Shown piece by piece: positions 49,644-54,334 of a DNA stretch of 64,000 nt. Numbering within the stretch: the stretch's first letter is position 1; each line of letters begins with the position of its first letter. The stretch is from NCBI GenBank assembly GCA_021776685.1, contig JAJFFJ010000018.1, positions 1 to 64,000 on the forward strand, given 5' to 3'. The notes beneath the pieces were generated by a model. The model saw only the letters and a program-made list of their open reading frames with translations, made no database searches and was not told the origin of the DNA. The position numbers were made by a program, and so were the translations under genes. This DNA is from Alphaproteobacteria bacterium. GTDB lineage: Bacteria; Pseudomonadota; Alphaproteobacteria; Bin65.

Positions 49644-51866
49644 ATGTCAACACGACTTCAGCGCTGGATTTCGCGCGTTGTGCCCCTGCTGCTGCTGTTC
49701 GGCATGGTGGCGCTCCGGGCCGTGGACCCCTGGGTCATGGAGCAACTGCGCAACATCGTTTTCGACACCTATCAGAATATAAAGCCCCGAAGCCACGACC
49801 CGGCAAAGTCGCCGGTTCGTATTGTCGACATTGATGACGAGTCCTTGAGGCGGCTGGGCCAATGGCCGTGGCCCAGGACGATTATGGCGCGGTTGGTGCA
49901 GCGGTTGCACGAGGGCGGCGCAATCGTGGTTGCCTTCGACATCATTTTTGCCGAACCGGACAGGCTGTCGCCACGACAGGCGCTCAAGACATGGCCGGAT
50001 GTGCCAGAGCTGAAAGCGTTGCGCGACCGGGGCAATACTCTGCCGGACAATGACGAGATGCTGGCCAAGGCGATGCGCCGGGGTCGCACGGTTACCGCCT
50101 TCGCGCTGGTCAATCGCAAGACCAAGACATTGCCACAGGTAAAGACCGGATTTGGCTATGGAGGCTACAGTCCGCTGCCCTTCATCTATGCCTTCGACGG
50201 CGGCGTCTCGACCATCCCGGTGCTGACCTCCGCGGCGGCGGGCAACGGCGCCGCTAACTGGGTTCCCGACCGGGACCAGATCCTTCGTCGGGTGCCTACT
50301 GTGTTCCGGGTGGGTGAAACGATCTATCCGACCCTGTTTGCTGAAGTATTGCGGGTTGGCGTGGGCGCGGGCGGCTACAAGATTCGCACGACCGCGGCCA
50401 GCGGAGATACGACCGGTGGCGCAAAGACCGGGATCACGGCACTGCAGATCGGCAATGCCTCCGTGCCCACGGATGCAAATGGCCGGATGCTGCTGTATTT
50501 CGCGCCCCATGACCGGAGCCGCTACATCCCGGCCTGGCGGATTTTGGCTGGTGAAATACCCGCGAACCAGATCAAGGGACGGGTCTTCCTCATCGGGACC
50601 AGTGCTGCGGGCCTGCGCGATATTCGCGCCACACCCTTGAGTACCAGCGTCCCGGGCGTAGAGGCGCACGCCCAGGCCATCGAGCAGGTCATCACCGGTG
50701 TCTACCTGCTGCGCCCGGACTTTGCCGACGGAATCGAAATTGTGGTGCTGTTCCTGGCCGGTCTGGGGATCATCCTGTTGTTACCCAAGCTGGGCGCATG
50801 GATGGCCATGGCGATCTTCTTTCCCATTGTCCTGCTGCTGGCATGGGGAGGATGGTATCTGTTCGACCAGTACAGGCTTGTGCTCGACGGTATCTATCCC
50901 GCCGTGGGCGTGCTGGTGGTTTTTCTGTCGATGACCCTGGCGAACTTCCTGATGGCGGAGCGGCAGCGAAACCAGATCCGCAATGCGTTCAGCCATTATC
51001 TATCTCCGGATCTGGTCAAGCGGCTGGCGGATCAGCCCGGGCAACTGCGCCTGGGCGGCGAATCCCGGCGCATGAGCATCCTGTTTTCCGACGTGCGCAA
51101 TTTCACCAATATCTCGGAAAAGCTGGATGCCGAAGCGTTGGCCCAGTTCATGAACCGCTATCTGACAAAGATGACGGATGCGATTCTGCGCCATGGCGGT
51201 ACGGTCGATAAGTATATCGGCGACGCCATCATGGCTTTCTGGAACGCGCCTTTGGTGGACGATGACCATCCGTCTAATGCGTGCAAGGCGGCGCTGGCCA
51301 TGATCGAGGGGCTGGAGCAGGTAAATCAGGAGCTTAGAGCCCAGGAAGGCTGGCCACTGGAAGACGATATCCGCATCGGTATCGGCATCAACACCGGCCA
51401 TTGCAGCGTCGGCAATTTCGGCTCCGAGCAGCGCTTTGACTATTCCGTGCTGGGGGATGATGTAAACGTGGCGGCGCGTCTGGAAGGACTCTCCAAGACC
51501 TATGGTGTTTCAACCTTGATTGGCGAGGAGACGAGGGCGGCGACATCTGAATTTGCTGCAGTCGAGCTGGACCTCGTCCGGGTCAAAGGCCGTGCAGCCG
51601 CCAGCCGTATTTACCTGCTTGCGGGAGGTGAGGATTACGCGCAATCCCGGGAATTTACCGAATGGAACGATCGGCAGAAGTCGATGCTTTCGGCGTACCG
51701 GGGGCAGGACTGGAGCAAGTGCAAGGCAGCAATCGCGGCCTGCCGTGAGGCTTCCAATGGCCGGATTGACGGATATTATCGTTTGATCGAAGCCCGCATG
51801 GATGGTTTCATGGCTGAACCACCGCCGTCCGACTGGGATGGTGTTCATGTGGCAATGACAAAATAA
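49644..51866 (+). CDS. CHASE2-domain adenylate cyclase
   Basis: Transmembrane class III cyclase, 740 residues: a first helix (about 12-28), a periplasmic CHASE2 sensor domain (about 50-355, with VDIDDESLRRLGQWPWPR and GAIVVAFDIIFAEPDR), three helices (about 360-445) and a C-terminal cyclase domain. Metal Asp D483 and D527, Lys K523 and Asp D599 (adenine-specifying positions) and the transition-state N608/R612 are all present, so it should make cAMP. What CHASE2 senses is unknown. The next gene starts 76 bases on. Confidence 0.93.
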   Translation: MSTRLQRWISRVVPLLLLFGMVALRAVDPWVMEQLRNIVFDTYQNIKPRSHDPAKSPVRIVDIDDESLRRLGQWPWPRTIMARLVQRLHEGGAIVVAFDIIFAEPDRLSPRQALKTWPDVPELKALRDRGNTLPDNDEMLAKAMRRGRTVTAFALVNRKTKTLPQVKTGFGYGGYSPLPFIYAFDGGVSTIPVLTSAAAGNGAANWVPDRDQILRRVPTVFRVGETIYPTLFAEVLRVGVGAGGYKIRTTAASGDTTGGAKTGITALQIGNASVPTDANGRMLLYFAPHDRSRYIPAWRILAGEIPANQIKGRVFLIGTSAAGLRDIRATPLSTSVPGVEAHAQAIEQVITGVYLLRPDFADGIEIVVLFLAGLGIILLLPKLGAWMAMAIFFPIVLLLAWGGWYLFDQYRLVLDGIYPAVGVLVVFLSMTLANFLMAERQRNQIRNAFSHYLSPDLVKRLADQPGQLRLGGESRRMSILFSDVRNFTNISEKLDAEALAQFMNRYLTKMTDAILRHGGTVDKYIGDAIMAFWNAPLVDDDHPSNACKAALAMIEGLEQVNQELRAQEGWPLEDDIRIGIGINTGHCSVGNFGSEQRFDYSVLGDDVNVAARLEGLSKTYGVSTLIGEETRAATSEFAAVELDLVRVKGRAAASRIYLLAGGEDYAQSREFTEWNDRQKSMLSAYRGQDWSKCKAAIAACREASNGRIDGYYRLIEARMDGFMAEPPPSDWDGVHVAMTK

Positions 51867-51942
51867 GGCCTAAAGGCCTGAAAATACGGGAAATACTCCT
51901 GCTGCTGATAAACAAAAAATTGGCACAGGCGTCGGGGAGAAT

Positions 51943-53367
51943 ATGGATCGGTTTGGCACGAATCTGTCGTTGCTGGCGATATTCGTCTGTGCTCTGACAA
52001 GCGCGACGGCGTTTGCACAGACGACACTTGATCCTGCGCGAGAGAAACGCCGCGTACAGGAAGAACGGCGCAAGACCGGTGCGGTCCAGCGGGGCGTGAC
52101 CACATCCCAGTATCTGAACCGGTTAATGGGCCGAAAGGTGACCTATGAAGAGGTCCTGAAAAACCCGGACGACATTGACCTGAACCTTGCCTTTGCACGG
52201 ACACAGATACGTGCGGGCGACCTCAATGGCGCCTCTGCCACTCTGGAACGGGTGTTACTGATAAAGCCGGGTAATCTTGCCGTGCGCATCCTGTATGCGG
52301 TGATTCTGTACCGCCTGGATGCCCGAAATGACGCCGAGAGGGAAATCCGCAACATCCTGAAATATAGGCTGCGGCCTGGCGTTCGGGCTGAACTGACGGG
52401 GTATCTGGAGGATATTGCCTGGCGCAACAAGCGCACCCGGTGGGAGGCCCTGTTCCACACCAGCTACCAGTTTGAGACCAACCGGAACAGCGTGCCATCC
52501 GGCACCGTGCTGGCCTCGCCCGGAGGACCGGTACTCCTGAATGGGGAAAACCAGGCAACAGCGGACAGTGCCGTTCGCGGCCTGGTGCGTCTATCGCTGG
52601 AGCACAAGATCGGCGGGCACTTGGGTCACAAGCTTGTCGCCAGGGTGGGGCTTTACCATTCCGAGCAACTTCGGCTCGACCGCCTGACCCTCTCAGTTGC
52701 TGATTTCGAAGGCGGACTGGTGCTGGATCTGACGCCTGTGGAGCTGCGCATCCTGGCCTTTACGCAATATCTCCAACTGTCCCATGAACCGTTCCTGGTC
52801 AATGGCGGCGTAAAGGTGAAGGCCGATTGGTGGATTTCCAAGGAAACCACCTTGAGGAGCAGCGCAACTTTCGATTCCCAACATTTCAATGAACTGGAAG
52901 AAACCGTTGACCAGGCCCGGCGCACCGGCCCGCAGGTCAGTGGCACCTTTGCAGTTCGCCACAAGATTACCGCACGGCATATCGGCTCAGTCGGTCTGCT
53001 GGCGCTGCGAAAGACGGCCAACGCGAACTACTGGCGGTATTATGGCGCCGGTCTGTTCGCGCGGCACCAATGGTTCTTCGGACACGGCATGTATCTGCTG
53101 TCCACGGCTTCATGGACCTATCATATCCACGATGCGCCGCGGCTGACGGACAGCAGCCGGACCCGCTATCAGCATTTTCTGCGGTTTGGCACCAGCTTCG
53201 GTGTGCCGCTCGCGTCAATCGTCCGCGGGGGCGGTCTGCCGAAGGTGTTCCGCCCGGTCAATCTGTCAGTCGGCATGGGCTACGAACGGTCTTTCTCGAA
53301 TATCCGTAATTATCAGTATTCCAACTGGCGGTTCACATTGGGCCTGACGCGACGGTTTGCGTTTTAG
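51943..53367 (+). CDS. Slam-like TPR/beta-barrel outer-membrane protein
   Basis: 474 residues with a signal peptide (about 1-25, cleavage after TAFA), an N-terminal helical TPR-like part (about 60-160, LAFARTQIRAGDLNGASATL) and a C-terminal part of alternating aromatic strands ending in RRFAF, with the terminal Phe of outer-membrane barrels. This architecture resembles the surface lipoprotein assembly modifier (Slam, DUF560) family. Family membership is inferred from layout, not a search. It lies 46 bases before the FecR-domain gene. Confidence 0.65.
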   Translation: MDRFGTNLSLLAIFVCALTSATAFAQTTLDPAREKRRVQEERRKTGAVQRGVTTSQYLNRLMGRKVTYEEVLKNPDDIDLNLAFARTQIRAGDLNGASATLERVLLIKPGNLAVRILYAVILYRLDARNDAEREIRNILKYRLRPGVRAELTGYLEDIAWRNKRTRWEALFHTSYQFETNRNSVPSGTVLASPGGPVLLNGENQATADSAVRGLVRLSLEHKIGGHLGHKLVARVGLYHSEQLRLDRLTLSVADFEGGLVLDLTPVELRILAFTQYLQLSHEPFLVNGGVKVKADWWISKETTLRSSATFDSQHFNELEETVDQARRTGPQVSGTFAVRHKITARHIGSVGLLALRKTANANYWRYYGAGLFARHQWFFGHGMYLLSTASWTYHIHDAPRLTDSSRTRYQHFLRFGTSFGVPLASIVRGGGLPKVFRPVNLSVGMGYERSFSNIRNYQYSNWRFTLGLTRRFAF

Positions 53368-53413
53368 CCGCGTATAGAGGGAAAGGTTCAGCCAAGGAGC
53401 TGGGAAAATCGTC

Positions 53414-54334
53414 ATGAAACCCAACAAAAACCTCGCCATTGCCGCCGCTGCAGTTATTGCCGGGCAATGCCTGGTGCCGACACTTGTCCATGCCGCCGGC
53501 GAGCGTGCAGGTGTCGCGGCGGCCGTGCGCGGCTCTGTCAAACAGGTTTCTTTCAAGACGCCCACCGCCAAGATCGGGCGCGTTGTTTCGAGCGGCGACA
53601 CCATACGCCTGGGTGACCGCATCAATACGGGGTCAAAGTCAGGCCTGCAGATCATGCTGTTGGACCAGACGGTCTTCACCATCGGTCCCAATGCCTCGAT
53701 GGTCATCGACAAGTTCGTCTACAATCCAAAGTCGCCCAGTCGCGGTACCCTGCAGGCGCGTATTTTGAAGGGCACCTTTCGCTTCGTGTCGGGGAAGATC
53801 GCTCACAAGAACCCGAATGGTGTGAAGCTCAAGCTCAAGGTCGCCACGCTGTCGATCCGGGGCACCAACGTGGTTGGGCAGACCGGCGGCAAGGCTGACG
53901 TCGTGATCCTTTCCGGTACAGGCAACAACAACAATGGCGGCTCTCCCACCAGCGCCATCCAGATATCAGCGGGCGGTTTCAAGGTCGTGATTACATCGAC
54001 CGGCTATGGCGCGATCATTTTTGATAATGGCTCAGGGCCGGTGACCCAGTATTTCAGCGGCGCCGCGTTTGCCGCAATCCTTGCTGCGCTGGGAATCCAG
54101 CCTCCACCGCCCCCAGGTGGGGGAGGCGGCAATGGACAGCCGGTCGATATCACAACCGCCATCATCATCAGCTTTACCGGGCAGGGCATCGGAGCCGGCA
54201 TTCTGAGCATCCGGATTGGCAGTCAGGTCTTTACCTTCACCACCACCGCCCAGCCGCCCACCGTCCTGCCCCCGCATATTCCGCCACCGGCGCCCCCACC
54301 TTCGGGCGGCGGGTACTACGGGTCCCCGTTGTGA
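53414..54334 (+). CDS. Secreted FecR-domain protein
   Basis: 306 residues with a signal peptide (about 1-28, IAAAAVIAGQCLVPTLVHAA) and a FecR domain (about 40-155) with SSGDTIRLGDRINTGSKSGL and LLDQTVFTIGPNASMVIDKF. A Gly/Asn stretch follows, then two low-complexity linkers, PPPPPGGGGGNGQP and a Pro-rich tail ending GGGYYGSPL. It lacks the inner-membrane helix of FecR itself, so it is periplasmic or exported. ATG follows AAGGAG. It lies with the cyclase and barrel genes. Confidence 0.85.
   Translation: MKPNKNLAIAAAAVIAGQCLVPTLVHAAGERAGVAAAVRGSVKQVSFKTPTAKIGRVVSSGDTIRLGDRINTGSKSGLQIMLLDQTVFTIGPNASMVIDKFVYNPKSPSRGTLQARILKGTFRFVSGKIAHKNPNGVKLKLKVATLSIRGTNVVGQTGGKADVVILSGTGNNNNGGSPTSAIQISAGGFKVVITSTGYGAIIFDNGSGPVTQYFSGAAFAAILAALGIQPPPPPGGGGGNGQPVDITTAIIISFTGQGIGAGILSIRIGSQVFTFTTTAQPPTVLPPHIPPPAPPPSGGGYYGSPL

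What the first reader, a model, noticed from the sequence alone, without database searches (positions are those of the whole stretch)
49644..54334. CHASE2 adenylate cyclase, Slam-like barrel and FecR-domain protein in one cluster
Three genes on one strand with gaps of 76 and 46 bases join a periplasmic-sensing cAMP synthase, a TPR-plus-barrel outer-membrane protein and an exported FecR-domain protein with Pro/Gly linkers. FecR and CHASE2 are both extracytoplasmic domains. A working idea is that the barrel exports or displays the FecR protein, and that the cyclase reports the state of that assembly as cAMP. I know of no described system with this set; the functional link is inference from gene order.
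Basis: partly seen in the sequence, partly recalled or inferred. Interest (0 to 1): 0.7.

Follow-up and report, generated by a model that had tools for sequence, protein, structure and literature searches.

The report
Outer-envelope sensor driving a cAMP cyclase
Three neighbouring genes encode an outer-membrane barrel, an exported FecR-domain protein and an inner-membrane cAMP-making enzyme; the same set recurs in bacteria of several phyla, which points to a relay that tells the cell about its outer surface, a relative of the known NsrA-CyaK sensor of rhizobia.

Summary
In detail: a CHASE2 class III cyclase, a TPR plus 14-strand barrel protein and a signal-peptide FecR protein lie on one strand with gaps of 76 and 46 bases. 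The set is not chance. In 63 alphaproteobacterial genomes, FecR lies beside the best CHASE2 gene in 33 and a barrel in 14, with both in 13. None of 134 cyclases without CHASE2 has FecR nearby. The barrel is Slam/T11SS-like: TPR plus 14 strands in the model, and close relatives pass the SlipAM cut-off, but the window protein itself does not. In several relatives the FecR protein ends in an 8-strand barrel like TbpB, NHBA and hemophilin, the T11SS cargo domain; the window's FecR protein lacks it. The claim that no described system has this set is wrong: NsrA-CyaK of Sinorhizobium (FecR+TPR+barrel fused, beside a CHASE2 cyclase), a Campylobacterota CHASE2/FecR/TPR/PDE cluster and a FecR/CHASE2-kinase operon of Burkholderia are published. 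Best reading: an outer-membrane barrel/FecR assembly signals through the FecR domain to CHASE2 and sets cAMP. I found no description of the Slam-type barrel and cargo link or of the FecR-CHASE2 specificity. New variant of a known kind.

The parts
49644..51866 (+). CHASE2-domain class III nucleotide cyclase (predicted adenylate cyclase): TM, periplasmic CHASE2 (20-374), TM segments (about 359-439), cytoplasmic cyclase domain (476-659)
   Evidence: Pfam PF05226 and PF00211; invariant catalytic residues; hydrophobic segments
51943..53367 (+). TPR + 14-stranded outer-membrane beta-barrel protein, Slam/T11SS-like; N-terminal signal segment, C-terminal Phe
   Evidence: TPR_19; AlphaFold model; 38%-identical relative L023 passes PF04575 SlipAM cut-off
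53414..54334 (+). Exported FecR-domain protein (FecR 68-169) with Pro/Gly-rich C-terminal tail; no T11SS cargo barrel
   Evidence: PF04773; N-terminal hydrophobic segment and tail; alignment A4

Best explanation
This is an envelope-sensing cAMP module. The TPR-barrel sits in the outer membrane and holds (in relatives with a cargo barrel, probably exports) the FecR-domain protein. The FecR domain stays in or faces the periplasm and is the partner of the CHASE2 domain of the inner-membrane cyclase. A change in the outer-membrane assembly (ligand at the barrel, or completed or blocked export of the partner) is passed FecR -> CHASE2 -> cyclase, and cAMP acts through CRP-type regulators. It works like NsrA-CyaK of Sinorhizobium meliloti, with the FecR, TPR and barrel parts divided over two proteins. 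Shown: gene set, predicted folds, conservation, CHASE2-specific linkage, cargo-type C-terminus in relatives. Inferred: physical contact, direction of signalling, stimulus, cAMP as product.
For: Class sample: best CHASE2 gene of 63 genomes has FecR within about 6 kb in 33, barrel in 14, both in 13; 36 of 150 listed CHASE2 hits have a listed FecR within 8 kb against about 1.3 expected, 0 of 134 cyclases without CHASE2. Same order and strand as the window in L132, L140 and L118; other arrangements in Myxococcota, Elusimicrobia, Omnitrophota. NsrA is one chain FecR(85-179)-TPR-C-terminal barrel, ending at the start codon of the CHASE2 cyclase CyaK, and NsrA is needed for CHASE2-cyclase activation by an external signal (PMC7529298). 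FecR partner of L063: FecR fold like PupR's signalling domain plus 8-strand barrel like TbpB/NHBA/HpuA/hemophilin. Barrel and FecR distances follow CHASE2 distances after removing the cyclase-domain signal: r 0.32 (p 0.004) and 0.28 (p 0.0006), 28 non-redundant loci. FecR also pairs with CHASE2 histidine kinases (PMC5192318). Own genome has 8 cNMP-binding proteins.
Against: About half of the nearest cyclase relatives show no FecR in the fetched stretch (39 of 80 do), though many stretches are truncated. The window FecR protein lacks the cargo barrel. In S. meliloti the FecR protein beside CyaD1 (SMc02177) was not needed for perception of the one plant signal tested, which acts through CyaK (PMC5498481). 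The paralogous barrel-FecR pair of this genome (C85) has no cyclase beside it in the stretch read, so the pair may also act without one. NsrA's barrel is not related in sequence to this one. No experiment on this organism.
Confidence: 0.6

Rival explanations
1. Receptor without export: the barrel itself is the ligand receptor and the FecR protein is a soluble periplasmic messenger between its TPR domain and CHASE2; nothing is translocated.
For: Window FecR protein has no cargo barrel; NsrA precedent has FecR, TPR and barrel as one receptor chain.
Against: Relatives with the same barrel family carry T11SS-cargo-like C-termini on the FecR protein and SlipAM matches; in other genomes FecR proteins beside CHASE2 cyclases are giant RTX/cadherin proteins, some beside type I secretion genes, which points to exported partners.
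Confidence: 0.22
2. The barrel and FecR genes are outputs, not inputs: they make a surface protein whose expression is controlled by cAMP from the neighbouring cyclase, which senses something else.
For: In S. meliloti the FecR gene smc02177 and the TPR gene smb20495 are Clr/cAMP targets and were dispensable for perception of the signal tested (PMC5498481).
Against: FecR associates with CHASE2 proteins specifically, not with other cyclases, also when the output is a histidine kinase (PMC5192318), and its divergence follows the CHASE2 sensor rather than the catalytic domain. NsrA acts upstream of its cyclase (PMC7529298).
Confidence: 0.13
3. The barrel exports a polysaccharide (PgaA/BcsC/PelB type TPR-barrel) and the other two genes regulate it.
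For: Fold search finds PelB and BcsC among many porins; very weak PgaA TPR hits (14 bits against a cut-off of 367).
Against: No glycosyltransferase or synthase gene recognised beside it; 14 strands and relatives match SlipAM. I recall 16 strands for BcsC and PgaA (not tested).
Confidence: 0.03
4. Unrelated neighbours placed together by chance.
For: Short gaps also to the flanking hemA- and ccmF-like genes.
Against: Conservation of the set in many genomes, while no fetched locus outside the window holds the flanking hemA or ccmF genes.
Confidence: 0.01

Closest known systems
NsrA-CyaK of Sinorhizobium meliloti (outer-membrane barrel receptor and CHASE2 adenylate cyclase)
   Same: FecR domain, TPRs, outer-membrane barrel and an adjacent CHASE2 class III cyclase; FecR parts align (hhalign E 4.6e-6)
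   Different: NsrA is one 1219-aa chain; its barrel is not related in sequence to the window barrel; here FecR and TPR-barrel are separate genes
CHASE2 cyclase / FecR / TPR / phosphodiesterase cluster of Campylobacterota (PMC9239204)
   Same: CHASE2 adenylate cyclase, FecR-domain protein and TPR protein in one cluster; authors infer one pathway and transfer among phyla
   Different: A phosphodiesterase gene is part of that cluster and was not seen beside the window genes; that paper calls the FecR protein the outer-membrane protein and gives no Slam/T11SS link in the passages read
BiofilmReg operon of Burkholderia (LysM-FecR protein + CHASE2 histidine kinase + response regulator, PMC5192318)
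   Same: FecR-domain exported protein encoded next to a CHASE2 sensor
   Different: Output is a kinase; no barrel; FecR is fused to LysM
Slam / type XI (T11SS) outer-membrane translocons and their cargo (PMC8406197, PMC12282271)
   Same: TPR plus 14-strand barrel; relatives pass PF04575; relatives' FecR proteins end in a TbpB/NHBA-like 8-strand barrel
   Different: Window barrel and FecR protein themselves do not match PF04575 or the cargo domain; the two T11SS papers contain neither 'cyclase' nor 'FecR' by full-text count
FecR/PupR cell-surface signalling anti-sigma factors
   Same: FecR domain; fold match of a relative to PupR's signalling domain (6ovk)
   Different: No anti-sigma part; signal peptide instead of an internal membrane anchor; no sigma factor or TonB receptor gene recognised among the neighbours scanned

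Membership tests
CHASE2 class III adenylate cyclases (CyaD1/CyaK type) | Periplasmic CHASE2 domain plus class III cyclase domain with catalytic residues | tested here: met
   PF05226 7.6e-58, PF00211 8.4e-22; invariant residues
CHASE2 class III adenylate cyclases (CyaD1/CyaK type) | Makes cAMP | not testable with these tools
   Residue pattern only
Slam / T11SS outer-membrane proteins | PF04575 (SlipAM) match over cut-off | tested here: not met
   No match for the window protein at E<=10; relatives L023 26.8, L030 29.9 and L075 34.1 bits pass the cut-off of 22
Slam / T11SS outer-membrane proteins | N-terminal TPRs and 14-strand barrel | tested here: met
   AlphaFold model; strand number of Slam from general knowledge
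Slam / T11SS outer-membrane proteins | Neighbouring cargo with C-terminal 8-strand barrel | tested here: not met
   Window FecR protein lacks it; met in relatives L033, L045, L063 and others
Slam / T11SS outer-membrane proteins | Translocates its cargo across the outer membrane | not testable with these tools
   Needs surface-exposure assay
NsrA-CyaK receptor pair | FecR, TPR and barrel encoded beside a CHASE2 cyclase | tested here: met
NsrA-CyaK receptor pair | All receptor parts in one chain with a homologous barrel | tested here: not met
   Two genes here; barrels do not align
NsrA-CyaK receptor pair | Barrel protein required for activation of the cyclase | not testable with these tools
   Shown for NsrA by others (PMC7529298)
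Campylobacterota CHASE2-AC/FecR/TPR/PDE cluster | CHASE2 cyclase, FecR protein and TPR protein adjacent | tested here: met
Campylobacterota CHASE2-AC/FecR/TPR/PDE cluster | cAMP phosphodiesterase gene in the cluster | tested here: not met
   Neighbours are a glyoxalase-like protein, ALA synthase, CcmF and DsbE; no phosphodiesterase seen
FecR anti-sigma factors (FecIRA type) | Cytoplasmic anti-sigma part, TM helix, ECF sigma gene nearby | tested here: not met
   Only an N-terminal hydrophobic segment; no sigma factor gene recognised next to it

The most novel reading that the evidence does not exclude
FecR domains are the general cognate input of CHASE2 sensors, whose stimulus has been unknown, and these modules report the export or retention state of surface proteins: through Slam-like barrels with FecR-TbpB-type cargo here and in relatives, and through type I secretion with giant FecR-RTX/cadherin adhesins in Bradyrhizobium-like genomes. 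That would be secretion-coupled cAMP signalling.
Probability: 0.35. Interest if true: 0.8.

Novelty: new variant of a known kind. Interest (0 to 1): 0.6.

Why it matters
A paper on CHASE2 kinases states that what CHASE2 domains recognise is not known (PMC5192318), and the link between outer-membrane NsrA and inner-membrane cyclases is unresolved as far as I know. The comparative data name a concrete candidate, the FecR-domain protein, and a candidate cargo/translocon pair, so both questions become testable with gene deletions and contact assays in laboratory strains. If right, it extends the Slam/T11SS family from host-associated nutrient and adhesion proteins to signalling.

Tried and rejected
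Barrel as nucleotide-pattern query in GTDB contigs found nothing; the cyclase alignment worked. Direct PF04575 match for the window barrel: none. Polysaccharide-exporter reading: no synthase genes recognised, only weak PgaA TPR hits. FecIRA anti-sigma reading: no sigma factor or anti-sigma part recognised. NsrA barrel as homologue of the window barrel: not supported. Promoter/terminator scan was uninformative (1 promoter-like site, 1.9 expected). Gammaproteobacterial sample could not be run (handle type not accepted). Structure of the FecR-barrel or FecR-CHASE2 complex could not be modelled (single chains only). The founding NsrA paper is not held, so its domain make-up was read from the sequence.

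Full report
OBSERVATION. The three ORFs are at the stated coordinates on the + strand: 740, 474 and 306 aa, with gaps of 76 and 46 bases. Pfam gives CHASE2 + Guanylate_cyc for the first, TPR_19 for the second, FecR for the third. Catalytic-site residues of class III cyclases are invariant among nine relatives. The neighbours are a 5-aminolevulinate synthase upstream (gap 93) and CcmF and a DsbE-like protein downstream (gap 116) on the same strand. No fetched locus outside the window holds these flanking hemA or ccmF genes, whereas the three-gene set recurs.

THE BARREL. The window protein has no Slam (PF04575) match even at E<=10. A 38%-identical full-length relative that is itself beside a 54%-identical CHASE2 cyclase (L023), and the relatives L030 and L075, pass the PF04575 cut-off (26.8, 29.9, 34.1 bits against 22); several more are below it. 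An AlphaFold model from 17 sequences (pLDDT 82.6) shows helical hairpins at 68-161 and 14 strands from 165 to 473, the architecture I know for Slam. Fold search in the PDB returns porins, OmpG, PelB and BcsC, which are generic barrel matches. I therefore call it Slam/T11SS-like, not a member.

THE FECR PARTNER. The window protein is a FecR domain with an N-terminal hydrophobic segment and a Pro/Gly tail. In relatives the partner is often longer. L033, L035, L045, L046 and L057 and others show weak but repeated matches to TbpB_B_D or FHBP_C at the C-terminus (E 2e-4 to 0.02). A model of the 442-aa partner of L063 has a FecR domain (34-215), a disordered linker (217-306) and an 8-strand C-terminal domain (307-442) (mean pLDDT 68 because of the linker). 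Foldseek matches the N-terminal part to FecR-type anti-sigma domains (4m0h, PupR 6ovk) and the C-terminal part to TbpB, NHBA, HpuA and hemophilin. The profile search independently hits GNA2132/NHBA (E 1.8e-4). Such a C-terminal 8-strand barrel marks T11SS cargo (PMC8406197, PMC12282271). The FecR profile also matches entry 5ix9 (E 2.7e-5 and 9e-4), which from memory is the N-terminal part of the Marinomonas ice adhesin; this is a lead only.

CONSERVATION AND CONTROLS. In 144 genomes of the class, CHASE2 occurs in 72 and FecR in 75. Of 150 listed CHASE2 hits, 36 have a listed FecR within 8 kb in 26 genomes, 29 on the same strand, with about 1.3 expected under uniform placement. This is a lower bound, because the FecR list was cut at 150 rows and the window's own FecR is not on it. 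Of 134 listed cyclase domains without a recognised CHASE2, none has a listed FecR within 8.5 kb (Fisher p 2e-11). In a sample of 63 genomes, one CHASE2 locus each, FecR was found in 33, the barrel in 14, both in 13; among the 80 nearest cyclases in GTDB genomes the figures are 39, 19 and 18. The two samples overlap slightly (for example L032 and L120 hold the same locus), and many stretches are truncated. The order cyclase-barrel-FecR on one strand, as in the window, occurs in L132 and L140 and in a deltaproteobacterial contig, L118. Other arrangements occur in Myxococcota, Elusimicrobia and Omnitrophota contigs and on alphaproteobacterial plasmids.

CORRELATED DIVERGENCE. For 32 loci with all three genes (28 non-redundant), barrel and FecR distances correlate with CHASE2 distances after removing the catalytic-domain distances (0.32, p 0.004; 0.28, p 0.0006). 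The reverse partial correlations are weaker (0.20, p 0.04; 0.01, p 0.41). This is suggestive only: shared history is controlled by one domain alone.

VARIANTS. In Bradyrhizobium-like and some other genomes the FecR-domain protein beside the CHASE2 cyclase is 1000-2300 aa with cadherin, laminin-G, FG-GAP or RTX domains. Type I secretion genes (ABC and HlyD) lie between the two in L104, and a HlyD-type or outer-membrane efflux gene lies beside the cyclase in L085 and L089. Thus the FecR-CHASE2 pair is the constant part and the outer-membrane partner changes.

PRIOR ART. NsrA (S. meliloti pSymB) is FecR(85-179) + TPRs + C-terminal barrel in one chain whose gene ends where cyaK starts. It is required, with CyaK, for response to an external peptidic signal (PMC7529298). 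A CHASE2-AC/FecR/TPR/PDE cluster is reported for Campylobacterota (PMC9239204), a LysM-FecR + CHASE2 kinase operon for Burkholderia (PMC5192318), and a TPR protein followed by a CHASE2 cyclase gene in magnetotactic bacteria (PMC4439547). A full-text search found only three papers with both FecR and CHASE2, and neither T11SS paper mentions a cyclase or FecR, so I found no description of the Slam-like barrel and cargo aspect of this signalling set in the papers held.

MECHANISM. Most likely: the barrel and FecR protein form an outer-membrane-linked assembly whose FecR domain signals to CHASE2, changing cAMP synthesis. Shown are the parts, predicted folds, conservation and CHASE2-specificity; contact, direction, stimulus and product are inferred. 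Against it: SMc02177, the FecR protein beside CyaD1, was not needed for the signal tested, and this genome's second barrel-FecR pair lacks a cyclase in the stretch read.

Noticed in passing
L025 6939-9784 (own genome, contig C85): Second barrel (33% identical) followed 44 bases later by a 449-aa FecR protein, without a cyclase of the window type in the stretch read.
   Followed up: partly
L130 6483-8696 (own genome, contig C105): Second CHASE2 cyclase of the genome with no FecR or barrel gene detected beside it.
   Followed up: partly
L090, L101, L104, L112, L113, L119, L121, L123, L127, L129: Giant FecR-domain proteins (1300-2300 aa; cadherin, laminin-G and RTX domains in those scanned) encoded beside CHASE2 cyclases; in L104 type I secretion genes lie between them.
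   Followed up: partly
L044 376-6851; L046 743-15946: NHLP-type bacteriocin export genes and a cyclic-nucleotide-binding protein gene beside FecR-CHASE2 cyclase genes on Ensifer and Shinella plasmids.
   Followed up: no
L039 4954-6162: FecR protein whose C-terminal part looks by eye like a Hint (intein-like) domain (CFTADTKVLMADN ... VHN).
   Followed up: no
own genome, e.g. contigs C39 and C41: At least 21 class III cyclase domains in this genome, some in tandem, with 8 cNMP-binding proteins: a large cyclic nucleotide network.
   Followed up: no
literature, PMC4439547 (MtxA): Magnetosome-linked MtxA (Ig-like + TPR) is followed by a CHASE2 cyclase gene; the unsolved N-terminal part could be a FecR domain, which was not checked.
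   Followed up: no
L174, L183, L184, L185, L186: FecR genes beside CHASE2 proteins that do not match the window cyclase's CHASE2 region by BLAST; these may carry other outputs such as kinases.
   Followed up: no
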